A stretch of DNA of 33,309 bases from Planctomycetales bacterium (GTDB lineage: Bacteria; Planctomycetota; Planctomycetia; Pirellulales; Pirellulaceae). Both the position numbers and the translations under genes were made by a program. Where the stretch lies: the NCBI GenBank assembly GCA_020426595.1, contig JAGQPS010000012.1, positions 1 to 33,309 on the forward strand, given 5' to 3'. The notes below the pieces were generated by a model. That model searched no databases. It saw only the letters and a list, made by a program, of their open reading frames with translations, and was not told the origin of the DNA. Shown piece after piece: positions 1 through 17,921 of the stretch (position 1 is its first letter; the number at the start of each line of letters is the position of its first letter).

Positions 1-1479
1 CCAAACATCGCTCTTGGGATTGGTGAACGACTTGCCTGTCTTGAGTTGAGCCAACATGCCGTTGTATCCGTCGACTCGAACGACCGCGGCAAGCGCTTGT
101 CCCATCGCCAGATCGTACGCCGCTTGCCAGCGCGGGTTGGTGATCTTCGCGCGATCCGCCTCGCCTTCCTTGAGGATGTCGGCGATCGTGTTCAAGTTCG
201 GACTCAACAAAGCCGCCGGTTGCTGGGCGATGTCGAGCGCGTTTTTCAGCGCGGCCTCATCGGTCGCATCGAACTGCATGATCGGGTTCTGAATCGTCCG
301 CGCCATGGGGAATCGACGAGCCACGGTGAGCAGCGCCGCGATCGCTTTGTTGCCGTCCCGCTCCGTGCGGTAGTCCTCGAGACTGCCGTAGTTGGGCGCG
401 TAACGCGCCATCGTGGCTGCGTCGAAGCGCGGGGCCACGTCCGAAGGCCAGCGCGAGTCGTAGGTCATCGCCGAGCTAAATCGACTGGCCGGCGGGCGGA
501 TCGCGAGGAATGCTCCGCCGCCCGCGCGACTGACTCGCTCCAGTCCCCATGGGCCGAAGCCCGAATCAAGCACGACGGCGCCGGTTCCGGCTCCCGTGAG
601 TTGAAAGGGGAGGAACTCCGGTTCGGGCGTTTCCGGCCCGTAGGCTCGTCCGTCCGCCTCACCCCGTTCGTTACGGAGAGCAGTGAGGCCGAACGGAGCC
701 GCGTAGCCGACGACGTAGATCGGAGCGGTCATCGAACGACTTCGCGTGGCGACATCGTCCGCTTGCTGCCAGTCGCCCCCGACCTCACCCGTGATCAACA
801 CGACCGCGATCATCGCTCGGTCGTCTCGGTACGGCGAAAGACGCTCCAGCGCCGCTTCCATGCCACCAAAGGTCAGACTCGGTTGAGGCTTGAAGGTCAA
901 CTGGTCGACCGCGTCGCCGATGGCGCTCGAATCGCGAGTCGGATCCTCGGTGAACCATGTGGTATCGGAATCGACTCCCGCGATCAGCGAATCAACCTGA
1001 CACTCGTCATGCTCCGAGTAGTAGTCGATCAACGCGCCCGCGCTGGCTCGGCTGAGCACCTCGGACTGCGCGCTCTGGTCGAAGAGCCACGCCACGACGA
1101 CTCGATCCTGCGCGGCATACTGCTCGAACTGCTCCATCATCCGGTCGACGGCCGCGTCCTCGCTGAGCGCTTGATCATTGTTGGGCCGATTGGTGCGTGG
1201 CTGGCCGCCGCCCAGGGTCGTGACGCGAATGCCGCCGCTACTCGATGATCCGCTCGAGCTATTTCCGTCACCGGAACCGCCCGACTGGCCCATCGGGCGC
1301 GATGAGACGGTTGAGTTGTCGGACGGAGGCGGGTCCGAGGTCGCCGATGTGTTTGTTGTTCCCGAAGTCGCGGGCGACTGGGACGTACCAGAATCGCCAC
1401 AACCGACGAGACTCGCGGCGACCACGATCAAGCCGAATGACAGGCATCGAACGAGGGAGAAGGGCCGGATGAGTGTCAT
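1..1479 (-). CDS. vWA-like lipoprotein, 3' end outside the window
   Basis: Reading leftward from ATG 1477-1479 the frame stays open to base 1, giving 493 residues with no stop, so the C-terminus is missing. A hydrophobic stretch at residues 13-26 ends in LVGC (Cys27), a lipobox, which predicts a lipid-anchored exported protein. A Ser/Gly/Pro/Thr-rich linker follows (about 28-85). Residues about 125-330 resemble a von Willebrand A fold: strand VVVAWLFD followed by QSAQ where DxSxS is expected, then AVVLITGE and PIYVVGYA strands. The third MIDAS residue is Gln rather than Ser, so metal binding may be altered. The start overlaps the upstream gene's stop as ATGA and has GGAG six bases ahead. It is the last visible gene of the leftward operon. 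The fold is assigned from strand pattern only; the exact function is unknown. Confidence 0.72.
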   Translation of the reverse strand, partial: MTLIRPFSLVRCLSFGLIVVAASLVGCGDSGTSQSPATSGTTNTSATSDPPPSDNSTVSSRPMGQSGGSGDGNSSSGSSSSGGIRVTTLGGGQPRTNRPNNDQALSEDAAVDRMMEQFEQYAAQDRVVVAWLFDQSAQSEVLSRASAGALIDYYSEHDECQVDSLIAGVDSDTTWFTEDPTRDSSAIGDAVDQLTFKPQPSLTFGGMEAALERLSPYRDDRAMIAVVLITGEVGGDWQQADDVATRSRSMTAPIYVVGYAAPFGLTALRNERGEADGRAYGPETPEPEFLPFQLTGAGTGAVVLDSGFGPWGLERVSRAGGGAFLAIRPPASRFSSAMTYDSRWPSDVAPRFDAATMARYAPNYGSLEDYRTERDGNKAIAALLTVARRFPMARTIQNPIMQFDATDEAALKNALDIAQQPAALLSPNLNTIADILKEGEADRAKITNPRWQAAYDLAMGQALAAVVRVDGYNGMLAQLKTGKSFTNPKSDVW

Positions 1480-2450
1480 GGTCGTCTCCAACTTCCATTT
1501 TCGTATACGTGGTCGCGCGGATCGAACTCAGAGGCGTTCAACCAGTCGACATCATGCAACGGCGGTAAGGTTTCCAATCCGATCGAACTCCAGCCCGTCG
1601 TGCCCCGAACGACCTCGGTGGAATCTCCCGGAGTAAAATCCGGAGCCAACAAAGCCAACTCGAAGCGTACCAGATCGGCGGTGCGTCGAGGCGAGAGTGA
1701 GTGATCGTAGGCGTAGCGCTTCAAGTCTTGGAAAGGAAGCAAATGCTCGACGGTGAGGTACATCGTCGTGAATCCCTCTTGCCGCATGAGCAGAAGGGCC
1801 TGCTCCCCTTCATCCTGTCTCACGAGTCTCACGGTTCGCAACAACATTTCGCGGTCGAGAGCCGAGAGCGGAGCTCGAATCGCCGTCGCGGGTGGTTTGA
1901 GCCATTGAACCCGATCGTTCTCCCCATATCGGTAGGCTAGGGTGCGAAAACGACGCTCCTCGTCGGGCGATCGAGCCAGCGAAACGAGGCTCGCCAGCGA
2001 GCCTTCCCGCGCCGATCCTCGTTCATGGTAGGCGACGATCAGGAATAGCCGAATCGCCAATTGGACCGCCTGGGGATCGACTCGTTGGGAGGCGAGCTCC
2101 TCGGCGAGCTCTCGATAGCCTTCCCATTGACCGGCTTGCAACGCATCGAGGCGGGCGGGATCCTCGGCTCGAGCGATGAGCAGGATCTGATCGCGCGGCA
2201 CGATTTGCTCCCGCGTGATCCCCTCGGCGTCCTTGATGGCGATCGTTACTCGGTCCTCTTGCTCGGCGACAACGGTCCCCACCATCGGTTTGGCTTGCCC
2301 TCGCACGACCAGCACATCGGCCCAGGCTTCACCGAGCAGCGGCAAGAGTGACAACGACAACGCCATACCAACGACCCAGCGCGTGGCTCGGCCAACACGC
2401 TGTCGAAAGCGTGGCAAGGATGCCGCGGAAATCTCCTCGCGTGGGCTCAT
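1476..2450 (-). CDS. Secreted protein of unknown function with N-terminal beta-module
   Basis: This encodes about 324 residues. I chose ATG 2448-2450, which overlaps the previous gene's TGA as ATGA; an upstream in-frame TTG at 2465 is possible but would only lengthen the overlap. A signal peptide (hydrophobic VVGMALSLSLLPLLG, then EAWA before DVLV) predicts export. The mature N-terminus is a short beta-rich stretch, beginning DVLVVRG and including GTVVAE and VTIAIKDAEG, that resembles the start of the product at 9957-11294. The remainder is largely alpha-helical with no motif I recognise. Its stop overlaps the start of the vWA lipoprotein, so the two are probably translationally coupled and may act together in the periplasm. 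No catalytic residues are evident. Confidence 0.75.
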   Translation of the reverse strand: MSPREEISAASLPRFRQRVGRATRWVVGMALSLSLLPLLGEAWADVLVVRGQAKPMVGTVVAEQEDRVTIAIKDAEGITREQIVPRDQILLIARAEDPARLDALQAGQWEGYRELAEELASQRVDPQAVQLAIRLFLIVAYHERGSAREGSLASLVSLARSPDEERRFRTLAYRYGENDRVQWLKPPATAIRAPLSALDREMLLRTVRLVRQDEGEQALLLMRQEGFTTMYLTVEHLLPFQDLKRYAYDHSLSPRRTADLVRFELALLAPDFTPGDSTEVVRGTTGWSSIGLETLPPLHDVDWLNASEFDPRDHVYENGSWRRP

Positions 2451-5212
2451 CGCATCAACATCCAAAGTCGAAGCATGGTTAGTTCCCCGTCGATCAACTG
2501 GTCCAGCGCGTTATCGGTGGACTGGGACCGGGTCTCATAGTCACTCCCCAGTCGCTTGGCATTCGCCGTTTCATCGGGACGCTTCAAGCTAACCCAGTCG
2601 ACCAACAATTGAATCCAGACTCGCTGTGCCGCGATGGTCACTTGAACCTCGTCCGCCGCGAGATAGGACAAGGCATGCAGGTTGCGTTCCGCATCCTGGT
2701 AGTGCGGTAACCCCGACGCGCCGGGGTCGTTGGTTGTCGACCAGACGATCCACTGCCGGAGCGCGGCCGTCAACTCCTGGCTAGGATAGTCCGAGAGGCT
2801 TCCGGTTGGCGCGCCTCCCAACGTCAAGCGACGCACGTCATAGACCGAGCCGAGGGCGCGGAACAACGGCTGAGGTCCATCTTCCGGAGTGGCCGTGACG
2901 ATCGGTCTTGGCGTGGCGCGAGTGGACGCCTCGAGGAGTTCCAAACCCTCGGTCAACAGCAACCGCCGCAGCTCATCGACCGTCAGCGAGTTGGCGTTGA
3001 GTTCCAAATCACCCGCATGAAAGGCCCGGTAGACCTCGGCGGTCAATTCGGGCCGCGTGCGGGGCGAATCGAGTTCATCGGCCAGACAGAGGTACAAGTC
3101 GGGCCACCGACGCATTTCAGTTACCGCGGACAGGACGCGGCGTTGTTCCGCCGCATCTCTCTGCCCAACCAGGAATCGCGCGACGGAAAGCGCGAGATCG
3201 CGGCGCCCAATAAGCAGCCGGTTTTCGGTCAGTGTGTCGCCTATCGCGCGGAAGGTCGCCAACGCGCTGGCCACCGAGGCGTGTTCCAGATCCTCGATTC
3301 GATCGACCAAGCGACGAATGGAACCGACGTCATCCACGTCGTCACTCGCGTCGGTGGATTCCGACGAATCCACTCCGGGAGGCAAGAATTCGGGTGGCCC
3401 GGCGTTCATCGCTTGAACGGCTTGCGACCCTTCCGCCGGCGCGACCACGAGTCTCGTCGCGATCGTGTTCAGGAAGCTAAGCTCCACGAGCCTCGTGAGT
3501 TTCTGTTCGCGCGATGATCCCGCCACGGGAGTCGCGGAAGTAACCTTGGAGCCGAGTTGATTCCAGACGAAACTCGGCGCGCGATCAACGACCGCGGCGC
3601 TCAACCCCAGTTGCTGACGCAAGGCCATGGCGACTTCGTCGGGAGCCGATGAAGTCGTCGTGAGACGAAAGTTCTCCTTGAGTCGTTCGGCTAGGTACTT
3701 AGCCAACTCGGGCTCTTGTGGGATCTCGATGAACTCCAACAACGCCGGCACATGTTCCTCGTTCGATCTCAACGTCGCGCTGTCGAGCAAGGACCGATAC
3801 CGCCGCCAATCCGCGGCGCTGGACCGGAGCAACTCGACCGATAGCTCGGTCAGCCACAAGCGGCGTTGTTCCTCGTCGATGACCTCTCGTCCGACCGTGG
3901 TCAGCTCGTCAAATCGCTGCATCGCCACCGCTGGGTTGCGGCTCGCGTGGGCCAGCAGTTGCTCGGCCATCGCCCGCATGTAATCGGCTTGGTACTGCCG
4001 CAGTCCGTCGGGACCTTCGGACGCCGCTAGGGTGCCGGTGAGGTTGCCCAATTCGATCCGGACTTCCTCGCGCCGAGCAATCGCGTAATCCTCGGTCGCC
4101 GTGAATTCCGCCAGAAGCTCGATCGTGTTCCAACCACGACGGTAGAAGCTGTCGCCGCTGGGGAGTCCATCGCGAGGAGGCCGAGCTTGATCGACGATGA
4201 GTCGAATCGTGCGGTCGACCATCGCTTGATTGGGTTCGTTGGCCAGCACGCCGTACAGGACCGCCTGCAATCGCGTACGGGTTTCCGGCGAGTTGGCCGT
4301 GTTACCCAGCGTGGTCACGACTCGTTGGTAGGCCTGTTCTCGTTCGACTTCGTCGGAGCTGGCGAGGCCCGGACCCCAGTCCCGAAACCCGCTGACCCGC
4401 GCGATGGCGTTGCCCACCGCCAAACGCATCGGTTCGTCCCACCAGGGAGGCGGCGCGAAGGTGCCGTCTCGCCGAGGATCCTCTCCGCTGGGGCCCTCGG
4501 CGGTCGAGTTGTTTCGCGAGTCAAGGATGCGGCGGTAGGTGACGATCAGCACGCCGGTCACGACCAGAATGACGGTCAACCCAACCATGGCGACCATCAA
4601 GTTCGTGCGACGCTGATCGGCTCGTTGTTTCTCTCGGTTGAGACGGCAATAGAGCTCGATCGTCGAGGCCACGTGCTCCTTCGAGACTCCCCATTCATCG
4701 CCCAACACAATCAGACGTTGCCGAGTATCGATATCCACCCAGACCGCGTCCTGGACGACTTCGCGGACCGTGGTCTCGACATGGCGTTCCGCCTCGGTCG
4801 CTGATATCCGTCGCTTGCCGAGTTGTTTCACCACCTGCGAGAAGATGTCTCGGGCGCGGGGAACATCGAGCTGGTACTTGGTCTCACCCAGCTTGACCGC
4901 TTTTTGCTCGACGTCGTGGGTGACGATCTCACTCGAGCGTTTGGACAGCTCCTTCTCGAGGTAAGCCTGAAAGGCCCGTTCGTACCGGTTGGGTCGGCGG
5001 ACTTGCGGCGGGCCTTGTTGGAGCACGCTGATCGCTTGCTCGAATAACTCGCGCGGGAGCTGCATTTCATCCGCGATCGCTTGCAGCTTCATGCTGGCCG
5101 CGGACGTCATGCCACGCTCGGCCGCGATGACCGGAGCCGCGCGATGTAGGAACTTCTCGAGACGCGAGTCGCGCTTGGGTAGTTGGGGTTGCTCTTCGCT
5201 AGGAGGCGTCAT
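2447..5212 (-). CDS. Large single-pass membrane protein of unknown function
   Basis: This encodes 921 residues from ATG 5210-5212, which has GGGAGG nine bases upstream and lies five bases after the preceding stop; an in-frame start at 5263 would overlap that gene by 46 bp. There is no signal peptide. Residues 1-200 are charged and helical, with motifs of the kind 'IADEMQLPRELFEQAI' and 'GDEWGVSKEHVASTIE', suggesting short repeated helical modules. One membrane helix follows at about 205-226. The remaining 690 residues are mostly alpha-helical and presumably face the periplasm. I recognise no enzyme motif. The downstream gene overlaps as ATGA. The topology suggests a protein that links a cytoplasmic helical domain to a large periplasmic domain within the ExbB/ExbD operon; a scaffold role is inference only. 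Confidence 0.8.
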   Translation of the reverse strand: MTPPSEEQPQLPKRDSRLEKFLHRAAPVIAAERGMTSAASMKLQAIADEMQLPRELFEQAISVLQQGPPQVRRPNRYERAFQAYLEKELSKRSSEIVTHDVEQKAVKLGETKYQLDVPRARDIFSQVVKQLGKRRISATEAERHVETTVREVVQDAVWVDIDTRQRLIVLGDEWGVSKEHVASTIELYCRLNREKQRADQRRTNLMVAMVGLTVILVVTGVLIVTYRRILDSRNNSTAEGPSGEDPRRDGTFAPPPWWDEPMRLAVGNAIARVSGFRDWGPGLASSDEVEREQAYQRVVTTLGNTANSPETRTRLQAVLYGVLANEPNQAMVDRTIRLIVDQARPPRDGLPSGDSFYRRGWNTIELLAEFTATEDYAIARREEVRIELGNLTGTLAASEGPDGLRQYQADYMRAMAEQLLAHASRNPAVAMQRFDELTTVGREVIDEEQRRLWLTELSVELLRSSAADWRRYRSLLDSATLRSNEEHVPALLEFIEIPQEPELAKYLAERLKENFRLTTTSSAPDEVAMALRQQLGLSAAVVDRAPSFVWNQLGSKVTSATPVAGSSREQKLTRLVELSFLNTIATRLVVAPAEGSQAVQAMNAGPPEFLPPGVDSSESTDASDDVDDVGSIRRLVDRIEDLEHASVASALATFRAIGDTLTENRLLIGRRDLALSVARFLVGQRDAAEQRRVLSAVTEMRRWPDLYLCLADELDSPRTRPELTAEVYRAFHAGDLELNANSLTVDELRRLLLTEGLELLEASTRATPRPIVTATPEDGPQPLFRALGSVYDVRRLTLGGAPTGSLSDYPSQELTAALRQWIVWSTTNDPGASGLPHYQDAERNLHALSYLAADEVQVTIAAQRVWIQLLVDWVSLKRPDETANAKRLGSDYETRSQSTDNALDQLIDGELTMLRLWMLMR

Positions 5213-5217
5213 GCGCG

Positions 5218-7944
5218 TCAGCCTCCCAGTTGTTGGGCCAGCGTTTGAAAACGCGTGCGCCAAGGTTCAAAGGGAATGTCGGGATGGAGCAATTGAAATT
5301 GATTCCAAACCTTGCGAGCGTCGTCGGGCCTCAGGCGGCGAAGGCAGTCGAGTTCGTAGTATCGAGCCTCGTACCAGCCAGCGCTGCCCGATTGGAGTCC
5401 GGCGGCCAGTTTGGCCCAAGGCTCGACCGCCTTATCCCAAGCTCCCTGTTCATAGGCGGCAAGGCCGAAACCGCGAAGAGCGGTGGAGTCGGTTGGAAAG
5501 GCGGCGGCGAGTGGCTCATAGACTCGCAGCGCTTCGGCCATGTCGCCGGCGGCGAACGCGTGGACTCCGAGTCGCTGGGCGGCGACCCGGGCGTTGCGTT
5601 CGTTGCGAAGGGTCGTGGGGGAATCACCCAGGAGCGATACCAATGTCCGGTAAGCCGGCACCGCCTCGCGGGAAATCGCGGGTCGCTGACTTTCATTCGC
5701 GGCTTCCCAGCGGCGTTCGAGTTCCCGAGTGACATAGACGAGACCCGATTTGCGATATGTCGGATCGTCGGCCTGTTCGGCGAGCCAACGTGCTTCCGCC
5801 TGGGCGGCCGCCGCTTGCTCGTTCGCCAACAGCTGCTGCATGCGTAAGTAATGGTACTGGGCGACCCCGCCGTGGCTTGACGCAAACTGGCTCGCCAAGT
5901 TCTCGGCTTGGTCCAACCAAGTCGACAGGTCCGAGGCATTGCCAGAAGCCCAGGCTGCTTCCGATCCGAGCAGGATCGCGCGCAATCGCTTCTCGCGTAA
6001 TTCCGGATCGATCGCCTGGGTCGAAAACCGACGGACTTCGTTGGCGAGCGCGAGATAAGCCTCCGCCTTGTCGGCTTCCGCCGCGTTCTTCCAGGCTTCG
6101 TACCGCAACGTGACCAGTTCGAATCGAGCCATGAGGTAGTTCGGATCACTCGAGCCAATGGCCTCGAGCACCGCGATGCTGCGAGCGGAACTCCCCGACT
6201 GGCGCTGCAGGCGAGCCAGTTGATACTTGGCCTCCGTCGCCTTGGGATGATCGGCGAAGGTAATGGTGATTTCCTGCAAGGCGGCCACGGCGGCATCGAG
6301 TTGAGTCGGGTCGTCCTGCGCCATTTGCTGGAAACAGATCGCGCGGAGCCAAGCGGATTCCACGGCGAGATCGCGGTCATCGGATCGCAGCAGCTGAGTC
6401 GCTTGTTCGAGATCGTCGACGGCGGTGGAGAGTTGATCGCTACGGTACTCCGCCCAACCGAGCTCGAATAAGGCGCGACCGAGTGACGGCAGATGGGCTC
6501 GCGCTTCGGGCAGCTCACGGGCTCGGGCCAAGGCTTCGGCCGCCGCGGCGAAGTCCTCGGCTCGTCCCGATGCTTCCGCCTTGGCCAGCAACTCATGCCC
6601 CAACATCCAGCCCATCCAAAAGTTGGCGGCACGCGGAGGCTGACCGGGAAACTCGGTTCGCAGTTCATCGATCAGTTGAAACTGCCTCAGTCGCACGAGG
6701 GTTTCGTATCCCATCATCCGCAACTCCTCGGCATGCGATCCTCCCGCGGCCAATCGCATCTCGCCTTGCCGGACCAGCGTGCGACCAAGACGTACGTCGG
6801 GAACTTGCGCCGGTGGCGTGACGCTATGCAGTCGCTTGCTGGCCAGGCTGAGCGCGGGAATGGGACGATCGGCGATGAGCGCCAACAGAATCGACTCGCC
6901 TTCCTTTTCTTGTCGCACCGCGGCGACGACGGAGTCGTCATTGAGGGCATTCAGCCATTGATCGGCGATCGAGTCGTTCCCCGCGACTCGTTCGATGAGC
7001 GCCATGCCGAGCGCCGCGCGGGCTCGCAAGGGGACCTCGAGAGCGAGGCTCTCGGCGTCCATACCCTCCGAGTCGCGGTCGTACTCGAACTCGAGGAATT
7101 CACCGAGTCGCGCGCGACCGCGGTCACACGACGCCGTTCGTGTCGCGGCGTTGGTTTCCGTGGACGCGAGGTACAGATCGTTCCAAGCGGCGTAGAACAA
7201 CGCTCGTAGATAAGCGGCTCGCACCGCTCCGGCTTGATTGAGTAGTTTCTCGGTTTGTTCCTCACTCCGTTCCCGGTCCAACTGATCCTGCAGCGTTTCC
7301 TCTTCCGCCTCGAGTCGGCCAAGCTTTTCGGCGAAGGATTCCTCGAGTCGAGCGAGCGAGGCACGGGCGGTCGCACGACGTTCCTCGTCGGTTGGTAGTT
7401 CCCACCACGCGACCGTCAGCTCATAGGCCTGTTGGTGTCGCGCTTGGAGAATGATCGTGTCGAGTTCCGGAGTTCGCAGCTGGCTGACCTTGTTGAGCAC
7501 CAACTCGAGCTGATTGAGCGATCGTTCAAGGGCTTCCCCTTGGAGCCGGCCGGTGCCGAGCTGTTGGCTATGAAGCTGCACGATCCGTCGCCCGATGAGC
7601 TCTTCCTCGGACGGTGTCGTCGCGGCGAGAAAACGGTCCTGCAAATGGACATCCAACAATTCGGTCAGATCGAGCCGCTCAAGGTAGAGCTCAAGCTCGG
7701 ACGGAGGCGCCGAGGCCGCGGTCCGAGTGGTCGGCTGGGCGCTCGCGGTTCGTCCCGCCATCGATAGCAAGGCGACGAACAGTCCCACGAACGCGGCGCT
7801 ACCCAGTGCACGGAACTGCGTTTCAGCGGCGCGTCTCGATGTGGAACGGCAGCCCGTCCGTTCGTTCAGCGCAGCAGCGCGCTCACGCCTTGGTCGAGGC
7901 GGTCCGAGCAACGAAGCATGGGCAGGCTGGACGAGGCGGGACAA
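5218..7944 (-). CDS. Exported TPR-like repeat protein (908 aa)
   Basis: The start is TTG 7942-7944: an AGGAG Shine-Dalgarno lies eight bases upstream and no in-frame ATG occurs before the hydrophobic segment. After a basic N-terminus of about 45 residues there is a hydrophobic segment (AAFVGLFVALLSMAG, about 49-63) ending near TASAQ, read as a signal peptide or anchor. The mature part is almost entirely alpha-helical, with TPR-like pairs such as 'ALFELGWAEYRSDQLSTAV', 'AKYQLARLQRQSGSSARSI' and 'LRGFGLAAYEQGAWDKAVE', and a coiled-coil-prone segment near 205-240. TPR arrays bind proteins. In ExbB/ExbD operons of other bacteria TPR proteins often accompany the proton channel, so a periplasmic adaptor role is plausible here. 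The partner is not identifiable from sequence. Confidence 0.8.
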   Translation of the reverse strand: MSRLVQPAHASLLGPPRPRRERAAALNERTGCRSTSRRAAETQFRALGSAAFVGLFVALLSMAGRTASAQPTTRTAASAPPSELELYLERLDLTELLDVHLQDRFLAATTPSEEELIGRRIVQLHSQQLGTGRLQGEALERSLNQLELVLNKVSQLRTPELDTIILQARHQQAYELTVAWWELPTDEERRATARASLARLEESFAEKLGRLEAEEETLQDQLDRERSEEQTEKLLNQAGAVRAAYLRALFYAAWNDLYLASTETNAATRTASCDRGRARLGEFLEFEYDRDSEGMDAESLALEVPLRARAALGMALIERVAGNDSIADQWLNALNDDSVVAAVRQEKEGESILLALIADRPIPALSLASKRLHSVTPPAQVPDVRLGRTLVRQGEMRLAAGGSHAEELRMMGYETLVRLRQFQLIDELRTEFPGQPPRAANFWMGWMLGHELLAKAEASGRAEDFAAAAEALARARELPEARAHLPSLGRALFELGWAEYRSDQLSTAVDDLEQATQLLRSDDRDLAVESAWLRAICFQQMAQDDPTQLDAAVAALQEITITFADHPKATEAKYQLARLQRQSGSSARSIAVLEAIGSSDPNYLMARFELVTLRYEAWKNAAEADKAEAYLALANEVRRFSTQAIDPELREKRLRAILLGSEAAWASGNASDLSTWLDQAENLASQFASSHGGVAQYHYLRMQQLLANEQAAAAQAEARWLAEQADDPTYRKSGLVYVTRELERRWEAANESQRPAISREAVPAYRTLVSLLGDSPTTLRNERNARVAAQRLGVHAFAAGDMAEALRVYEPLAAAFPTDSTALRGFGLAAYEQGAWDKAVEPWAKLAAGLQSGSAGWYEARYYELDCLRRLRPDDARKVWNQFQLLHPDIPFEPWRTRFQTLAQQLGG

Positions 7945-8038: not shown

Positions 8039-8470
8039 TTATTCGTTCGAGGCGGGGACATAGGACACGCTGGGAAACCCCGCGGTGCGACAAGCTTGGA
8101 TCGCGGCGGCGGTCATGTCGAACGAAGCTCCGTCGTGCACGATCACGAACGCTCCCTCGTCCTTATTCTCGAAGGCTTCCAGTAGACGCGTCAACTCGGC
8201 GGTTTCCGTGAACTCGCGACTTCCAATGCGATAGAGGCCTCGTCCCCCTTGGGTCAGCACTTCGACAACGGCGGGTTCGAGTCGTCCGGCGGACGGCTGA
8301 GCCTCGGTTTGGTCCTTGACTTGAATCACCGGCCGCAACTGCTTCTCGGCCTTGGTGAAACTGGTCGTGACCAGAAAGAAGATCAACAGCAGGAAGACGA
8401 CGTCGATCATCGCGGTCATCGAGAGTTCGATGCGCCCGGCTTCCTGTCGATGTCGGCTTGAGAGTTTCAT
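8039..8470 (-). CDS. ExbD/TolR family proton-channel subunit (second copy)
   Basis: This encodes 143 residues, the usual ExbD size. A short basic cytoplasmic N-terminus is followed by one membrane helix (about 20-40) beginning MTAMIDVVFLLLIFF; Asp23 is the conserved membrane aspartate that carries protons in ExbD/TolR. The C-terminal periplasmic domain includes 'GAFVIVHDGASFDMTAAAI'. With an ExbB partner, such proteins use the proton gradient to energise an envelope partner (TonB or TolA type). It lies 76 bp downstream of another ExbD and is clearly diverged from it, so the two probably form a heteromeric channel or serve different partners. The Shine-Dalgarno is weak. Confidence 0.9.
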   Translation of the reverse strand: MKLSSRHRQEAGRIELSMTAMIDVVFLLLIFFLVTTSFTKAEKQLRPVIQVKDQTEAQPSAGRLEPAVVEVLTQGGRGLYRIGSREFTETAELTRLLEAFENKDEGAFVIVHDGASFDMTAAAIQACRTAGFPSVSYVPASNE

Positions 8471-8484
8471 GTCGAGGCCTGTTG

Positions 8485-8507
8485 GGGCGGGGCGGGGCGG
8501 TCTGGGA
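8485..8507 (+). other. G-quadruplex motif between the two exbD genes
   Basis: The plus strand carries G-runs of 4, 4, 4 and 3 separated by loops of 1, 1 and 6 bases, meeting the usual quadruplex rule. It lies in the 76-bp gap on the template strand of the leftward operon. Confidence 0.5.
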
Positions 8508-8546
8508 ATGACTCGCGGTTGGTCGGTTTCATCGCGGCTCTCGGCG

Positions 8547-8969
8547 TTACCCTCCGGGAGTCGCTTGGACGGTGACTCGTACTTGGCGGACTCCTAGATC
8601 AACCAGACGCCGCACGAGTTCATTGGGCGCGTCGGTCGTGGCTCGACGGTCGCAGCGAATCAGTACGCGTAAGGCCGCTGGATCGCCTCCCTTGGCCGCG
8701 ATCTCCTGGCCGATGAACAACACCGCCTCCGAGATATCCGTCTCGCGACCCGAGATGACGATGGTTCCGTCGGATCGAATGTTGACCGTGTAGGTTTCTG
8801 GTTCGACGTCCTCGACGCCTTCCTGCAACGGAAGCTCCACCGGCTCCTCGTTGACTCGTGTGATCTGCGAAACGGTCATGAAGAAGATGATCAACAGAAA
8901 AACGATGTCGATCATCGGCGTCATATTGAACGCGACGTCGGGTCGTTTGCGTTGTCGACTGAGTCTCAT
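8547..8969 (-). CDS. ExbD/TolR family proton-channel subunit (first copy)
   Basis: This encodes 140 residues. The N-terminus is basic, then one membrane helix begins MTPMIDIVFLLIIFF, a near-consensus ExbD motif with the proton-carrying Asp21. The periplasmic domain holds 'YTVNIRSDGTIVISGRETD' and 'LRVLIRCDRRATTDAPNEL', typical of ExbD. It is 86 bp after the ExbB-type gene and 76 bp before the second ExbD. No tonB-like gene is visible between 1 and 12 kb, so the energised partner is probably a non-TonB protein such as the TPR-like or membrane proteins of the same operon (inference). Confidence 0.92.
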   Translation of the reverse strand: MRLSRQRKRPDVAFNMTPMIDIVFLLIIFFMTVSQITRVNEEPVELPLQEGVEDVEPETYTVNIRSDGTIVISGRETDISEAVLFIGQEIAAKGGDPAALRVLIRCDRRATTDAPNELVRRLVDLGVRQVRVTVQATPGG

Positions 8970-9025
8970 GGCGACTCTCGATCAGTAAGCGTCGAACCGC
9001 CAACGGCTAGGGAGCCGTGGCGACC

Positions 9026-9048
9026 GGGGCGGGGAGGGACGCGCTGGG
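9026..9048 (+). other. G-quadruplex motif between exbB- and exbD-type genes
   Basis: The plus strand carries G-runs of 4, 4, 3 and 3 with loops of 1, 1 and 7 bases. It lies in the 86-bp gap, in the same relative place as the motif at 8485-8507. Confidence 0.5.
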
Positions 9049-9055
9049 CGATGCG

Positions 9056-9865
9056 TTACACTCGCTTGCGACCGAGTGGTAACAACGTGCGCTCCACTCG
9101 CTTGCCCGCTTCGGCGATCAGCGAGTCGATCTTGTTGCGGAAGTAGCTCAGTGCGACGAGCGATGGGATGGCGACGACGAGCCCAAGCAGCGTGGTGATC
9201 AGAGCCTCGCCGATGCCTCCCGCGAGTTCCTCGGGCTTGGCCATGCCTTGCTTCTCGGCGATGGTCATGAAGGCGCTGATCATACCGAGCACGGTACCGG
9301 TGAGCCCGAGCATGGGGGCGACCTGTCCGATCACGTTCAGCACTTCGGTCTTGCGGTAAAGACGGCCGGTGGCATCCTCGCCCGCTTCCTGCACGGCCGT
9401 CTTGTATTCCGCGAATCCATACTCGCTCGAGCGGTAGCGTTCGAGGCCCGCGAGGATCACTTCCGACACCAAACTGTAGCTGGCCGGGTCGTGGCAAAAG
9501 TCGATCGCCTCGTCGATCTCGCCTCGCGCGATTCGCTGCTCCAGCTCGGCCAACACATCCTCCGGCATCAGCTTGTTCTTCGTGATCGTGATCGCATGTT
9601 CGATCGCGAAATAAACGCTCACGACGCTGAGTAACAGAATCAAGACACTGATGGCGATACCGGCCGGGTCACCGGCGAAGAGCAGGCCCAACAAACGGCG
9701 TTGCCCCGGTTTCGATTCCTGGGATTCCGCGCCGGGCGTTGAAGGAGCCAAGGGATCGGTCAGTTCGGTCGAGTCACTGCCGCCTTGCCACGCCGAGACC
9801 GGTGACGGAAGAGCAAGGGCGCCTCCAATGATGAGGATCGCAATCAAGGCTCGCATCCAGCTCAT
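9056..9865 (-). CDS. MotA/TolQ/ExbB family proton channel with signal peptide
   Basis: This encodes 269 residues from ATG 9863-9865, preceded by GGGAG at seven bases; a start at 9937 is possible but places a charged 24-residue tail before the signal peptide. Residues about 1-26 form a cleavable-looking signal peptide ending VSAW, followed by a linker of about 40 residues. Three membrane helices follow: ISVLILLLSVVSVYFAIEH, then the family signature region 'TEVLNVIGQVAPMLGLTGTV', then 'ALITTLLGLVVAIPSLVAL'. Subunits of this family form the pentameric core of proton-driven motors with ExbD. The extra signal peptide plus periplasmic linker before the first channel helix is longer than in E. coli ExbB. 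Two exbD genes follow at once, so a functional channel is very likely. Confidence 0.92.
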   Translation of the reverse strand: MSWMRALIAILIIGGALALPSPVSAWQGGSDSTELTDPLAPSTPGAESQESKPGQRRLLGLLFAGDPAGIAISVLILLLSVVSVYFAIEHAITITKNKLMPEDVLAELEQRIARGEIDEAIDFCHDPASYSLVSEVILAGLERYRSSEYGFAEYKTAVQEAGEDATGRLYRKTEVLNVIGQVAPMLGLTGTVLGMISAFMTIAEKQGMAKPEELAGGIGEALITTLLGLVVAIPSLVALSYFRNKIDSLIAEAGKRVERTLLPLGRKRV

Positions 9866-9956: not shown

Positions 9957-11294
9957 TTAGGGGGCGAGCGTTATCCGTCCGTCGCGCAGGGCCTGGCCGT
10001 GCCACGTCTCCGGAAATTGTCGCATAAGTTCATTCCGCACTCGTGCCGCCGCCGACGCCTGTTCCAGTCCCTGCATGGTGAGCGCCGCTCGCCATAGCGC
10101 GGCGGCCGCGATCTCAGGAGCGAGATCGCCTTGTTCGGCCGGAACCCGCAGCAATTCAATCAAGCCACGCGGCACCGAAGCCGCGGAACCGACTGAGATC
10201 TTGGCCAGCCCCAATTCGTAGCGAGCCAAGCTCTGTAGTTGAGGTTCCATTTGATCGATGCGCTGGTCCAAGGAAGCGATCCGTTCCCCCGCTTGTCCCG
10301 CCGCGCGAGACTCCTGGAGCCGTATGACGGACAACCAATCCTGCTGTCCGGGCGTGGCGGGATTGGACAACCGTAATTGCTCCTGAGCCAACGAGCGATC
10401 GCCGACCGCGAGGGCCAGTGACGCCACGTAGAGGCGGCAAGCGGGCGACGGATTGGGAAGTCGCTCGAGTTCCGCGACGACGATCGGCAAGGCCTTCGCC
10501 GCTTCCTCGGTGTCAAACCAAACCGGCGGAAGTTGGGGGTCCCAGAGCCCGTCCGACTTGGTTTGCGGCCAAGAGAAGCGAGGCGAGCGCGGATCCTGCG
10601 CGCTATCAAAGGGACGCTGGAGAGCGAGCCAAGCGGCCAAGGCATGCGCTCGCTCGCCTTGACTGAGGTGAAATCGGTACAAGCCAAGTTGGACCAACTG
10701 CCCGGCCGTCGAGCTGGAATCACCGAATGAATCGGCAAGCGATTCCGCGATGGGGCCCGCCCCACCGTCGTCGCGCAGATCGAGGCGATATCGCAAGCGA
10801 TAGAGCGTCGGCCCAAACTCGTTCAGCCACCGGTCGAAATCGGCCTGCTGATCACCAGAGACTTCACCGTAACGGATTTCTCCCCAGCCCAAACGACGCG
10901 ATCCGACCAACTGCACGCCTTGCTCATCAATGCGAGCGATCGTTACGTCCTCCAGAGTCGTGAAGTCACGTAGCACGATCGTATCGGCTCGGGTCACCTT
11001 CGCCGTGAGACCCCAGAAGAGCCCGACGAGAGCCAAGACAAACGCCGCGCGAAGCGTCGGACTCCAAACCCGCGGGACCGTCGCGAGTTCGGCGGGGAGA
11101 GAATAGGAGAATCGCCGAGGCCGACGGGGCGTCGAGCCATCTCGTTCCGACTCGCCAACAACGAACGGGGAGACACCGTCGACTCGTCGCGCGACATCAA
11201 GCAGGGAATTTGCTCGGAGTCGGCGGGGATGAGTCACGGTCTCTCGGCAAGGGGGTGGCGAGCATGTTCCAGGCGATGGGGCAACTTCGAGCAT
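9957..11294 (-). CDS. Secreted or membrane-anchored helical-repeat protein of unknown function
   Basis: Up to 445 residues from ATG 11292-11294. The Pro/Cys-rich beginning looks unlike protein-coding sequence, and a GTG at 11237 with GAGAG just ahead is an equally good start. A hydrophobic helix (about 82-102, AAFVLALVGLFWGL) is followed by a beta-rich stretch beginning DTIVLRDF that resembles the N-terminus of the product at 1476-2450. The rest is alpha-helical and TPR-like, for example 'GLYRFHLSQGERAHALAAW' and 'ALTMQGLEQASAAARVRNE'. It is the first gene of the leftward operon, 91 bp before the ExbB-type gene. No catalytic motif is seen. It probably acts in the periplasm with the channel proteins (inference). 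Confidence 0.72.
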   Translation of the reverse strand: MLEVAPSPGTCSPPPCRETVTHPRRLRANSLLDVARRVDGVSPFVVGESERDGSTPRRPRRFSYSLPAELATVPRVWSPTLRAAFVLALVGLFWGLTAKVTRADTIVLRDFTTLEDVTIARIDEQGVQLVGSRRLGWGEIRYGEVSGDQQADFDRWLNEFGPTLYRLRYRLDLRDDGGAGPIAESLADSFGDSSSTAGQLVQLGLYRFHLSQGERAHALAAWLALQRPFDSAQDPRSPRFSWPQTKSDGLWDPQLPPVWFDTEEAAKALPIVVAELERLPNPSPACRLYVASLALAVGDRSLAQEQLRLSNPATPGQQDWLSVIRLQESRAAGQAGERIASLDQRIDQMEPQLQSLARYELGLAKISVGSAASVPRGLIELLRVPAEQGDLAPEIAAAALWRAALTMQGLEQASAAARVRNELMRQFPETWHGQALRDGRITLAP

Positions 11295-11616: not shown

Positions 11617-12348
11617 TCAAACGTACTCTTGATAGAGCGGCTTGATGATGAGTTCCGGAACGTGCGCGGCTTGCGGGAGCCGAGCGATCGTGGCGACGAC
11701 CGCGCCAATGTCGTCCGGTTGGACCATCTGAGCCTTTCGCTCGTCCGGCACCGGGACGGGGCGTTGGTCGAGGATCGGAGTATTGACTTCGCCTGGGTAG
11801 ATCGTCGTGACTCGGATTCCGTTCTTGGCCTCTTCGTTGCCCACGGTGGTACCGAGAGCCGCCATGGCGAACTTGGAAGCGCAGTAAGCCACGCCACCAA
11901 GGGTCAGGGCTCGCTTCCCGGAAATCGACGAGATGCTGATGATCAATCCGTCCTGCTGGGACCGCATGATGGGCAGGGCGTGAAAGAAGCAGTTGTAGGC
12001 GCCGGTGGCGTTGACCTGCAGCACCTGGTCCCACTGCTCGGGCTGCATTTCGCCCATCGATCGCGTTCGAATATTGATCCCCGCCGCGTGCACGAGGATG
12101 TCGAGACGTCCCCATTTTTCCTTCACGCTCTCAAAGAGTCGTCCCACCGCGTCACGATCGGCGACGTCGGCGGCGAGACATTCGACTCGATCATCGGCCC
12201 CACAAGCGGCTCGCGTCGCCTCGAGTGGCTCCAGGCGTCGGCCCACGAGCAGAAGGCGGCAACCTTCCGCGGCGAGAGCTTTGGCGATACCGGCTCCGAT
12301 ACCGGTTCCTCCTCCGGTAATGACGACCGTCTTGTCTCGTAGACTCAT
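11617..12348 (-). CDS. Short-chain dehydrogenase/reductase (SDR)
   Basis: This encodes 243 residues from ATG 12346-12348, with GAGGAG eight bases upstream; an upstream in-frame start at 12399 lacks such a site. It is a classical SDR in length and motifs: the nucleotide-binding TGGGTGIG (11-18), Asp61-Val after the fourth strand, HAAG (87-90) in place of NNAG, Asn113, and the catalytic Ser141, Tyr155 and Lys159 in YCASK. It should catalyse NAD(P)(H)-dependent oxidation or reduction of a small alcohol or ketone in the cytoplasm; GRR after the second strand suggests NADPH preference. The substrate cannot be read from sequence. It is divergent from the RDD operon and 322 bp from the next leftward gene, so probably monocistronic. 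Confidence 0.93.
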   Translation of the reverse strand: MSLRDKTVVITGGGTGIGAGIAKALAAEGCRLLLVGRRLEPLEATRAACGADDRVECLAADVADRDAVGRLFESVKEKWGRLDILVHAAGINIRTRSMGEMQPEQWDQVLQVNATGAYNCFFHALPIMRSQQDGLIISISSISGKRALTLGGVAYCASKFAMAALGTTVGNEEAKNGIRVTTIYPGEVNTPILDQRPVPVPDERKAQMVQPDDIGAVVATIARLPQAAHVPELIIKPLYQEYV

Positions 12349-12805: not shown

Positions 12806-12890
12806 GAGCGGCGATTGGAAGCGAATGGCGACTTGTGTTGAACGGCGACGTGTGGCGAATGGCAACGTGTGGCGAACGGTGATAGCGAGG
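12806..12890 (+). repeat. 17-bp tandem repeat, five degenerate units
   Basis: Five consecutive 17-base units start at 12806, 12823, 12840, 12857 and 12874. Each begins with GARYGG, and the third and fourth differ at only two positions. The last unit ends with the GAGG that may serve as ribosome binding site of the RDD gene. Confidence 0.75.
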
Positions 12891-12895
12891 CTTGG

Positions 12896-13924
12896 GTGAG
12901 CGAACAGCGGCAAGTGGCACGAGGTTTGGTTCCCGAGAACCAGGCGATTCGTTGGGACGTCAGTCAGCAGCTCGATACCACCGAGCGGATTGTGACTCCC
13001 GAGAACATCGCGTTCGAGCAGCACTGCGCGGGAATCTTCTCCCGTGGCTTGGCGTTCCTGATCGACGTCATCGTGTTCGCCGTGGTTTGGTTGGTCATGT
13101 TGTTCATCGAGTGGATGCTCGCCCTGGCCGTGATTTGGGCGGCCATTCAGCTCGGCGTTTCGAGTCTGCTCGACGATGTGTTTTTCATCGTGGCCGGCAT
13201 CAATCTGGTGGTGCTGTTTGTCTCGTATTGGTTGGTATGGGGGTGGACGGAGTCACGATTCAACGGTCGGACGTTGGGAAAGTTGGCCTTGGGAATTCGC
13301 ACGGTTTCGGTTTCGGGGCATCCGATCAACGGTTGGCAGGCGATGGTTCGATCGATCGTGCGTGGAGTCGAATTGATGCCGTTCGTGACCTGGGGAATGG
13401 TGGTCGGAATTATCATTCCTCCTCGCACGTTCGCGAGTCAGTACGATCCGTCCTTCCTGCCTCTGTACACGTCCATGCCTTTCGGAACCGGCTTGATCGG
13501 ACTCTTGTTTCTGACACTGTTCCCGCGATTCCAGCGACTCGGAGACATCGTGGCGGGCACGATGGTGGTCTACGATCGTTCGCGGAAGAACCCGGGGCTC
13601 GCCGAACTGGAGGATCCCCGCACGGCCGCCTTGGCGGAGTTCATACCCACCTCGTTTCGACCGCGTCGGGAACTGGTCAAGGCGATTAGCGTGTATGTGC
13701 ATCGCCGCGCGAGGCTAAGCGAAGCCCGGCGGAGCGAGATCGCGGGTCACATCGCCAAGCCCCTATTGGCTCGGTTTGGCATGTTGCCCGACACCAATTA
13801 CGACTTGCTGATCTGTGCGATCTATTACCGACAGTTGATTGCTCCCGACGCGACCGAGAAAGCCGAGGCGGCTCGCCTCGCCGCGAAATCGTCGGCTCTT
13901 CGAACCGTGGGAGGCCCCGCATGA
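12896..13924 (+). CDS. RDD family membrane protein
   Basis: About 342 residues from GTG 12896, five bases after GAGG; an in-frame GTG at 12869 lies inside the tandem repeat and lacks a ribosome binding site. The RDD domain is clear: TPENIAFEQHCAG, then FSRGLAFLIDVIV with the diagnostic Arg and Asp, several membrane helices, and the later GRTLGKLALGIRTV and FQRLGDIVAGTMVV motifs. The C-terminal 100 residues are soluble and helical. RDD proteins are membrane proteins, some linked to ion transport, but most have no known role. The stop overlaps the next start as ATGA. The same RDD/SpoIIM/DUF4129/DUF4350/MoxR/DUF58 set is known to me from actinobacteria and planctomycetes, without a defined function. 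Confidence 0.9.
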   Translation: MSEQRQVARGLVPENQAIRWDVSQQLDTTERIVTPENIAFEQHCAGIFSRGLAFLIDVIVFAVVWLVMLFIEWMLALAVIWAAIQLGVSSLLDDVFFIVAGINLVVLFVSYWLVWGWTESRFNGRTLGKLALGIRTVSVSGHPINGWQAMVRSIVRGVELMPFVTWGMVVGIIIPPRTFASQYDPSFLPLYTSMPFGTGLIGLLFLTLFPRFQRLGDIVAGTMVVYDRSRKNPGLAELEDPRTAALAEFIPTSFRPRRELVKAISVYVHRRARLSEARRSEIAGHIAKPLLARFGMLPDTNYDLLICAIYYRQLIAPDATEKAEAARLAAKSSALRTVGGPA

Positions 13925-14889
13925 AAGTTTCCCAGATCCTGGAGAACCGACAGGAGCAATGGATCGAGCTCGAAAAACTCTGTGGCTCGATGGCATTACC
14001 CGGCGGTCGTGACGCGACGTCGATCGCCAAGTTCAGCAACCTGTACCGCGACGCGTGCGCCGATCTCGCCTTGGCTTCATCCTATCAACTGCCCGATGAG
14101 ACGATCGACTATCTCCAGCGGTTGGTCGCGCGGTGCCACAATTTGCTCTATCGGTCACGAGGCTTCGATTGGGGCTCGGTTGGCAAGGTCTTGTTCCATA
14201 CCGTGCCTCAAGCTTGCTTTCGCGACGGCTGCATTCATTTGGCTTTCGTCGTGTTCTGGGGCTTCTTCCTCTTCGCGGCTTACATGGGGTATCACGACGA
14301 CGAGTTCGTGGAAAGCGTTCTCGGGCCTGGCCATCGCGAGCAAACGATCGAGCAGTGGGAGGGTTTCAGCGAGAACTCCATGGCCTCGAAATTTGGCATG
14401 GCCTGTTTCTACATCTTCAACAACGCCGGCATCGGCATGGGCTGTTTCGCCGCGTCGACGTTGTTCGTGCCTGGGTTGATCACCCTGCTTCAGAACGCGA
14501 TCGTCCTGGGGACGACGTTTGGTTTCATGTTCCATCCCAGCGCGGGAGTGGCCAGCGAGAACTTTCGCAACTTCGTCACGGCGCACGGTCCCTTCGAACT
14601 GACCGCGATCGTGTTGAGCGCGGGAGCCGGACTGAAGATCGGCATGTCATGGATTCGGACTCACGGCTTGAACCGCCTTGATTCGGTGGTGAAAGCCGGA
14701 AAGGAGGCGATTCCGATCGCCGGGTGCGCCTCGCTGTTGTTCTTCGGAGCGGCGATGATCGAGGGGTTCATCTCGCCGACGGAGTTGCCTTGGGCGTTCA
14801 AGGCGTTCATCGCGGTCTGTTGCTCGTTGTTTCTCGTCTTCTATTTCGTCGTACTTGGTTTTCCACGAGGAGAGTCCAGTGCGGCTTGA
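13921..14889 (+). CDS. SpoIIM-like (DUF95) membrane protein
   Basis: This encodes 322 residues; ATG 13921 overlaps the RDD stop as ATGA, with GGGAGG six bases ahead. A soluble helical N-terminus of about 95 residues precedes about five membrane helices. The family pattern is visible: 'FYIFNNAGIGMGCF', a HGPFELTAIVLSAGAGLKIG segment and AAMIEGFISP near the C-terminus. SpoIIM in endospore formers belongs to the engulfment complex with SpoIID and SpoIIP and acts on the septal wall, but this family is widespread in bacteria that do not sporulate, including planctomycetes. Here it is an operon partner of RDD and MoxR, so a cell-envelope role is reasonable. Nothing suggests sporulation. Confidence 0.88.
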   Translation: MKVSQILENRQEQWIELEKLCGSMALPGGRDATSIAKFSNLYRDACADLALASSYQLPDETIDYLQRLVARCHNLLYRSRGFDWGSVGKVLFHTVPQACFRDGCIHLAFVVFWGFFLFAAYMGYHDDEFVESVLGPGHREQTIEQWEGFSENSMASKFGMACFYIFNNAGIGMGCFAASTLFVPGLITLLQNAIVLGTTFGFMFHPSAGVASENFRNFVTAHGPFELTAIVLSAGAGLKIGMSWIRTHGLNRLDSVVKAGKEAIPIAGCASLLFFGAAMIEGFISPTELPWAFKAFIAVCCSLFLVFYFVVLGFPRGESSAA

Positions 14890-17909: not shown

Positions 17910-17921
17910 GAGTGCATCCCG

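What the first reader, a model, noticed from the sequence alone, without database searches (positions are those of the whole stretch)
8039..9865. Proton channel with two unequal ExbD subunits and no TonB
One ExbB-type and two diverged ExbD genes are followed by a TPR-like exported protein and a large single-pass membrane protein, with no TonB or TolA-like protein visible. The ExbB-type protein has its own signal peptide and linker. The energised partner is therefore unknown and may be one of the neighbours.
Basis: partly seen in the sequence, partly recalled or inferred. Interest (0 to 1): 0.5.

Follow-up and report, generated by a model that had tools for sequence, protein, structure and literature searches.

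The report
Proton motor with a detached arm
This planctomycete DNA encodes a proton-driven membrane motor whose two unequal stator subunits are ordinary in its group; the missing force-carrying arm is probably made from a gene elsewhere in the same genome rather than by one of the neighbours.

Summary
In detail: one ExbB-type gene (9056-9865), two different ExbD genes (8547-8969, 8039-8470), no TonB or TolA gene beside them. Two unequal ExbDs are ordinary here: 4 of the genome's 5 ExbD loci carry a pair. The genes lie in a planctomycete operon, TPR-A/ExbB/ExbD/ExbD/TPR-B/TM938/P329. In 15 of 38 ortholog loci with room, a gene just upstream encodes a membrane-anchored von Willebrand A (vWA) protein with the Ser-x3-His helix of TonB/TolA-like transducers, an architecture published in 2025 (PMC12204202). 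The window lacks this gene, but its genome has a homologue on another contig: zinc ribbon, Ser-x3-His helix, linker, vWA domain. In 119 family genomes this protein family and the window-type ExbB occur together in 45, singly in 2 and 2, neither in 70. Three other ExbB types of the genome show no association. The link survives correction on a proxy tree. No TonB C-terminal domain or receptor plug was found in the genome. Best reading: a vWA-type proton-driven transducer system whose arm is encoded in trans; a new variant of a known kind. Binding and function were not tested.

The parts
1..1479 (-). Lipoprotein (lipobox LVGC, by eye), weakly vWA-like, cut off by the contig end; follows P329 in the window's own subclade
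   Evidence: ORF read; of the loci scanned, homologues found only in L109 and L110, directly after P329 (the L109 copy is interrupted by N). vWA resemblance weak: Pfam E 0.015 and 0.083 for the two relatives, none for the window protein; PDB profile hits to an integrin I domain E 0.37; no profile match to the vWA transducers.
1476..2366 (-). P329: exported protein; its N-terminal stretch resembles that of TPR-A by eye
   Evidence: found in 23 of 31 ortholog loci with at least 6 kb beyond TPR-B.
2447..5212 (-). TM938 (921 aa): N-terminal region, one membrane helix, long helical remainder (orientation inferred)
   Evidence: AlphaFold2 mean pLDDT 66, almost all helical; present in 28 of 37 loci with room; Ser-x3-His in 0 of 29 homologues.
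5218..7944 (-). TPR-B: exported TPR-like protein (signal-peptide-like stretch near residue 50-70 of the ORF)
   Evidence: Pfam TPR_19 just above its cut-off, three other TPR models below theirs; in 43 of 47 ortholog loci.
8039..8470 (-). ExbD-2 (TolR/ExbD-like, 143 aa)
   Evidence: Pfam ExbD E=3.9e-14; channel Asp kept in 35 of 35 homologues.
8547..8969 (-). ExbD-1 (TolR/ExbD-like, 140 aa)
   Evidence: Pfam ExbD E=1.2e-18; channel Asp kept in 37 of 37 homologues.
9056..9865 (-). ExbB-type channel subunit (269 aa) with signal-peptide-like start and N-terminal linker
   Evidence: Pfam MotA_ExbB E=1.6e-28; aligns with E. coli ExbB 5sv0, E=9.3e-13; equivalents of ExbB T148 and T181 kept in 39 of 39 homologues.
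9957..11036 (-). TPR-A: exported protein, small five-stranded beta domain plus TPR-like helical solenoid
   Evidence: AlphaFold2 pLDDT 87.5; Foldseek best hits are TPR proteins, weak (best E 0.013, none at 0.001); recognised in 45 of 47 ortholog loci.
11617..12348 (-). Short-chain dehydrogenase, occupying the position where the vWA transducer gene lies in other relatives; probably not part of the machine
   Evidence: Pfam adh_short E=5.9e-52; also upstream of the operon in L109 and L110.

Best explanation
The window carries the motor and periplasmic parts of a vWA-type proton-driven force transducer system. ExbB most likely forms a pentamer around two ExbD helices, one from each paralogue. Protons passing the conserved ExbD aspartates drive it. 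The arm that takes up the force is not encoded here: it is most likely the zinc-ribbon / membrane-helix / vWA protein on contig C104 of the same genome (393 aa). Its Ser-x3-His helix would dock on ExbB as TonB and TolA do, and its vWA domain would act in the periplasm on the exported TPR proteins and/or the lipoprotein. Shown here: the genes, the channel residues, the conserved operon, and the strong co-occurrence of this ExbB with this transducer family. Inferred: the ExbD heterodimer, the docking, the force transfer. The cellular task is unknown; work on the outer membrane or on periplasmic/envelope polymers is likeliest.
For: Ortholog loci with the transducer gene upstream of TPR-A on the same strand: L025-L031, L104-L108, L114, L125, L143, L144; 15 of 38 with at least 1.5 kb upstream. 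Own genome: C104 32-1213 encodes the homologue, Pfam VWA_4 E=2e-10 and sub-cut-off zinc-ribbon hits, helix SCMVH. Co-occurrence in 119 family genomes 45/2/2/70, Fisher p=7.9e-28; by genus 29/1/1/37. Controls: ExbB types of loci C554 (109 of 119 genomes, p=0.31), C455 (113, p=0.40) and C776 (107, p=0.76) are not associated. On a proxy tree of 70 genomes ExbB changes 16 times, the transducer 15, jointly 18; 0 of 20000 simulations of independent evolution reached the observed 66 of 70 concordance, maximum 54. Ser-x3-His in 23 of 26 linked-type and 8 of 11 unlinked-type transducers against 0 of 29 TM938 homologues. The motor-facing end is similar between the two types (zinc ribbon 44%, helix+box 38% identity) while the vWA part is not (22% between, about 62% within; ten sequences). 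No TonB C-terminal domain and no TonB-receptor plug in the genome.
Against: The C104 gene ends 31 bases from a contig end, so its downstream neighbour is unseen. Of the four other ExbB/ExbD loci of the genome, C699 was not tested as a control. The transducer E-value cut was placed in a score gap after seeing the data; including the next hit (G296, 8.6e-47) gives 45/2/3/69. The proxy tree rests on three proteins of another motor locus. Exceptions: G318 and G380 have the transducer without this ExbB; G347 and G362 the reverse (G362's contig starts inside TPR-A; in the 18 kb fetched G347 shows only ExbB and TPR-A). In some transducers the motif is altered (L101 Asn for His, L143 Gln for His, L144 Ala and Gln, L100 Thr for Ser). 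Most family genomes lacking a linked transducer were judged on draft contigs.
Confidence: 0.7

Rival explanations
1. TM938, the single-pass protein two genes downstream of ExbD-2, is the energised arm: its helix docks on ExbB and its long helical part transmits force.
For: Same operon and orientation; one membrane helix and a large helical remainder; weakly similar ORFs lie at the same place in more distant planctomycete loci (26-58 bits in 13 of them).
Against: Ser-x3-His in 0 of 29 homologues, two of them without a segment over the cut; absent next to the motor in 9 of 37 loci with room; loci such as L025-L031 hold both TM938 and a vWA transducer, so it is not an alternative to it. It could still bind the motor in another way.
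Confidence: 0.15
2. The motor has no dedicated pulling arm: the two ExbDs themselves, with TPR-A and TPR-B bound to their periplasmic domains, act on peptidoglycan or another partner by rotation.
For: TPR-A, ExbD-1, ExbD-2 and TPR-B are the most constant genes beside ExbB (45, 46, 45, 43 of 47 loci); both ExbDs keep the channel Asp.
Against: Does not explain why the zinc-ribbon vWA protein tracks this ExbB and not the three other ExbB types tested.
Confidence: 0.1
3. The vWA-like lipoprotein at the window start is the partner in cis and replaced the membrane-anchored transducer in this subclade.
For: It follows P329 in the window and in two close relatives, which have no transducer gene upstream of TPR-A.
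Against: It has a lipobox and so no membrane helix to dock on ExbB; its vWA resemblance is weak; all three genomes also hold the unlinked transducer. More likely an accessory partner.
Confidence: 0.05

Closest known systems
vWA force transducers with TPR, tolQ-like and paired tolR-like genes in the PVC group (PMC12204202, Mol Biol Evol 2025; section 8 read in full; passages elsewhere)
   Same: One tolQ-like gene, a pair of unlike tolR-like genes, a TPR gene, and a membrane-anchored vWA protein with the Ser/His motor-binding motif; planctomycetes are named there.
   Different: Here the transducer gene is detached from the operon, carries an N-terminal zinc ribbon, and in the detached form has a different vWA domain. 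TPR-B, TM938 and P329 are added as conserved neighbours. A word search of that paper's main text for zinc, unlinked and orphan found none.
AglRQS gliding motor of Myxococcus xanthus (PMC3169522, passages seen)
   Same: One TolQ-like and two unlike TolR-like subunits; the likely arm GltG, which interacts with AglR in a two-hybrid test, is encoded in another cluster.
   Different: AglRQS/Glt is a gliding machine; no Glt protein was sought here, and no gliding function is implied.
TonB-ExbB-ExbD and TolA-TolQ-TolR
   Same: ExbB and ExbD families and channel residues; tonB too is infrequently next to exbBD, according to a passage of PMC12204202.
   Different: No TonB C-terminal domain and no TonB-receptor plug found in the genome; two ExbDs; vWA instead of a TonB/TolA C-terminal domain.
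Long ExbB of Serratia marcescens (PMC9008036, passages seen)
   Different: There it works with HasB/TonB; here no TonB was found.

Membership tests
5:2 proton motors (ExbB/TolQ/MotA with ExbD/TolR/MotB) | MotA_ExbB and ExbD domains with channel Thr and Asp residues | tested here: met
   Pfam hits over cut-off; Thr equivalents 39 of 39, Asp 37 of 37 and 35 of 35. The ExbB Glu176 equivalent is Glu in the window but Gln in 27 of 39 (Glu in 5).
5:2 proton motors (ExbB/TolQ/MotA with ExbD/TolR/MotB) | Pentamer around a dimer; proton conduction | not testable with these tools
   No complex prediction or assay available.
vWA-type force transducer system (PMC12204202) | TPR gene, tolQ-like gene, pair of unlike tolR-like genes | tested here: met
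vWA-type force transducer system (PMC12204202) | Membrane helix with Ser/His motif, linker, vWA domain, in the same genome | tested here: met
   C104 protein: SCMVH helix, Pfam VWA_4 E=2e-10. The Leu/Ser half of the SHLS motif was not counted.
vWA-type force transducer system (PMC12204202) | Transducer gene adjacent to the motor genes | tested here: not met
   SDR gene upstream of TPR-A; no transducer hit in the window by profile search; homologue on another contig. The paper says 'often', so adjacency is typical rather than defining.
TonB system | TonB C-terminal domain and TonB-dependent receptors | tested here: not met
   PF03544 0 and PF07715 0 matches in the held genome; both searches found their models in 3 of 14 control genomes.
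AglRQS/Glt gliding machine | Glt proteins and gliding | not tested
   Glt homologues were not searched.

The most novel reading that the evidence does not exclude
The arm is a modular, interchangeable part. Its motor-facing half (zinc ribbon, Ser-x3-His helix and following box) has been kept while the vWA working end was exchanged and the gene left the operon. The cytoplasmic zinc ribbon would let the cell control when the proton motor engages, so one motor could be re-aimed to a new envelope target by changing a gene in trans.
Probability: 0.3. Interest if true: 0.6.

Novelty: new variant of a known kind. Interest (0 to 1): 0.42.

Why it matters
It gives a concrete, testable partner to a motor that looks orphaned. 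It also suggests that planctomycetes without a detectable TonB system may run envelope work through vWA arms, and the linked and unlinked forms allow a natural swap experiment on how 5:2 motors choose their arms.

Tried and rejected
TonB elsewhere: PF03544 gave nothing in the genome; a TonB-receptor plug search gave nothing. TolA (PF06519), TonB_2 (PF13103) and Pal were not searched.

Chance or artefact: rejected; TPR-A, ExbD-1, ExbD-2 and TPR-B recur in 45, 46, 45 and 43 of 47 ortholog loci. Two of the 47 (L030, L031) have the same last 150 residues of ExbB.

Structure of TM938: almost all helical, mean pLDDT 66, the 50 Foldseek hits listed have TM-scores of at most 0.20; no use. TPR-A gave only weak TPR matches. 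ExbD-2 had no PDB match up to E 0.1. The C104 protein had no PDB match at E 0.01. Profile comparison of the lipoprotein with the vWA transducers matched only a stretch of signal/membrane residues (probability 1.3).

An ancestry explanation of the co-occurrence was tested on a proxy tree and judged insufficient, within the limits of that tree. The 70 genomes were chosen by me: mostly one per genus, plus G310, G362, G380 and both genomes of genus g265.

Literature: seven searches. Searches each returned only PMC12204202. Any statement that the detached zinc-ribbon form is unpublished rests on these and on the word search.

Full report
WHAT IS THERE. The window is the first 33,309 bases of contig C33 of a 5.96-Mb draft genome (867 contigs, 91% complete). 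On the minus strand the window reads, in order of transcription: TPR-A (9957-~11036), ExbB (9056-9865), ExbD-1 (8547-8969), ExbD-2 (8039-8470), TPR-B (5218-7944), a 921-aa single-pass protein here called TM938 (2447-5212), an exported protein P329 (1476-~2366) and a lipoprotein cut by the contig end (1-1479). Pfam confirms ExbB and both ExbDs well above cut-off; TPR-B has weak TPR hits, TPR-A and TM938 none. An AlphaFold2 model of TPR-A from 15 sequences (pLDDT 87.5) shows a small five-stranded beta domain followed by a TPR-like solenoid; the PDB matches are TPR proteins but weak.

THE CHANNEL LOOKS FUNCTIONAL. ExbB aligns with E. coli ExbB (5sv0) across residues 74-262. The equivalents of Thr148 and Thr181 are kept in 39 of 39 homologues; the equivalent of Glu176 is Glu in the window but Gln in 27 of 39. 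The helix Asp is kept in 37 of 37 ExbD-1 and 35 of 35 ExbD-2 sequences. That both keep it fits one heterodimer in the pore or two alternative homodimers; sequence alone cannot decide.

TWO UNEQUAL EXBDS ARE ORDINARY HERE. The genome has nine ExbD hits at five loci, four of them with a pair. Of 80 loci from the genome collection, 61 have at least two ExbD hits on the ExbB strand. AglQ/AglS of Myxococcus and the paired tolR-like genes described for the PVC group are published precedents. ExbB with a signal peptide and a periplasmic extension is known from Serratia.

THE OPERON IS CONSERVED. In 47 ortholog loci TPR-A is recognised in 45, ExbD-1 in 46, ExbD-2 in 45, TPR-B in 43. L119, L125 and L138 miss genes where their contigs end; L132 (genome G347) lacks both ExbDs and TPR-B in the stretch fetched; TPR-A was not recognised in L123 and L142. 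TM938 follows in 28 of 37 loci with at least 4 kb beyond TPR-B and P329 in 23 of 31 with at least 6 kb. Thus TPR-A, ExbB, ExbD-1, ExbD-2 and TPR-B form the core and TM938/P329 are frequent additions.

THE MISSING GENE. In 15 of 38 ortholog loci with at least 1.5 kb upstream, a further gene precedes TPR-A: a membrane-anchored vWA protein (Pfam VWA_3 E=1.6e-13 in L026). In the six same-family proteins read first (L026-L031) it begins with a zinc ribbon; in the distant locus L034 it does not. Its helix carries Ser-x3-His; the 2025 paper describes a Ser/His/Leu/Ser motif by which TonB and TolA bind their motors. In 14 loci of the named scan the order vWA, TPR-A, ExbB, ExbD, ExbD, TPR-B, TM938-like is seen; 11 of them are labelled Phycisphaerales, -aceae or -ae, and except in L143 the TM938-like matches are weak (26-58 bits). 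The linked order is therefore probably ancestral (inference). The window has a short-chain dehydrogenase at that place, as do two close relatives L109 and L110, and no vWA transducer was detected in the window by profile.

THE CANDIDATE ELSEWHERE. The same genome encodes, at C104 32-1213, a 393-aa protein with zinc ribbon, helix CGLGSCMVHLIILVLIGLIRW, a conserved IGxLP box, a linker and a vWA domain. In the ten relatives fetched (L094-L103) no operon gene was recognised beside this detached form (their other neighbours were not identified). Between detached and linked forms the zinc ribbon (44%) and helix plus box (38%) stay similar, while the vWA parts share 22% against about 62% within each form (ten sequences). 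Genomes G301 and G350 hold the linked copy and a second copy on another contig.

CO-OCCURRENCE. In 119 genomes of the family, window-type ExbB (E at most 1e-50) is in 47 and the zinc-ribbon vWA family (E at most 1e-60, above a gap in the scores) in 47; 45 have both, 2 only ExbB (G347, G362), 2 only the vWA protein (G318, G380), 70 neither (p=7.9e-28; by genus 29/1/1/37 of 68). With the next-best hit included the table is 45/2/3/69. Three other ExbB types of the same genome are near-universal and unassociated: C554 in 109 (p=0.31), C455 in 113 (p=0.40), C776 in 107 of 119 (p=0.76); the C699 type was not tested. Relatedness was addressed on a FastTree tree of 70 genomes built from ExbB and both ExbDs of the C455 locus: 16 changes for ExbB, 15 for the vWA family, 18 for the joint state, so most changes coincide. 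A two-state model of the vWA family evolving independently of ExbB never reached the observed 66 of 70 concordant genomes in 20000 runs (maximum 54). The tree is a proxy and midpoint-rooted.

Ser-x3-His was found in 0 of 29 TM938 homologues (L116 and L137 had no segment over the hydropathy cut); TM938 is often absent and occurs together with the vWA gene elsewhere, so it is probably an accessory. The motif was found in 23 of 26 linked-type and 8 of 11 unlinked-type proteins, types assigned by profile and the own C104 protein not counted. The six misses are L108 (no segment passed the cut, though SLAFH is visible), L143 (Gln for His), L144 (Ala and Gln), L100 (Thr for Ser), L101 (Asn for His) and L146 (no segment). 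The lipoprotein at the window start was found only in the window, L109 and L110 among the loci scanned and is at best weakly vWA-like.

MECHANISM. Shown: genes, channel residues, conserved order, co-occurrence. Inferred from the known families: ExbB pentamer around an ExbD dimer, proton-driven movement, docking of the transducer helix on ExbB, and force passed through the vWA domain to periplasmic TPR proteins or an outer-membrane partner. No TonB C-terminal domain or TonB-receptor plug was found in the genome, so nutrient import through TonB receptors is unlikely to be its task.

NOVELTY. The class was published in 2025 (PMC12204202, section 8 read in full). New here, as far as the searches named above show, are the detached arm, its zinc ribbon, the exchanged vWA end, the statistical link to one ExbB type, and the wider set of conserved neighbours. 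I rate it a new variant of a known kind, of moderate interest.

Noticed in passing
window 12869-20887, + strand: A divergent gene run RDD / SpoIIM / membrane protein / DUF4129 / DUF4350 / MoxR AAA / DUF58; the MoxR protein starts with a zinc ribbon (sub-cut-off Pfam hits) that looks like that of the vWA transducer.
   Followed up: partly
window 1-1479, - strand: Lipoprotein 42-48% identical to proteins of two close relatives and found in no other locus scanned; weak vWA resemblance.
   Followed up: partly
L021 (own contig C776) 14763-17406: A single-ExbD locus followed by a protein with a Ser-x3-His helix (SVAVH) and a long low-complexity stretch, cut by the contig end and without Pfam match: possibly another non-TonB transducer.
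   Followed up: no
L023 (own contig C554) 5045-8946: A near-universal paralogous locus (ExbB type in 109 of 119 family genomes) with its own vWA protein in cis (SMAAH helix, no zinc ribbon), TPR protein and two ExbDs.
   Followed up: partly
L155, L160, L163, L181 (TM938 position): TM938-like ORFs there start with a stretch that by eye resembles a J domain (PFALLGL ... ETPEADEVRLALH); Pfam found nothing in L155 and L163.
   Followed up: partly
G347 (L132): In the 18 kb fetched this genome keeps ExbB and TPR-A but shows no ExbD or TPR-B, and it has no zinc-ribbon vWA protein over the cut: perhaps a decaying copy of the system.
   Followed up: no
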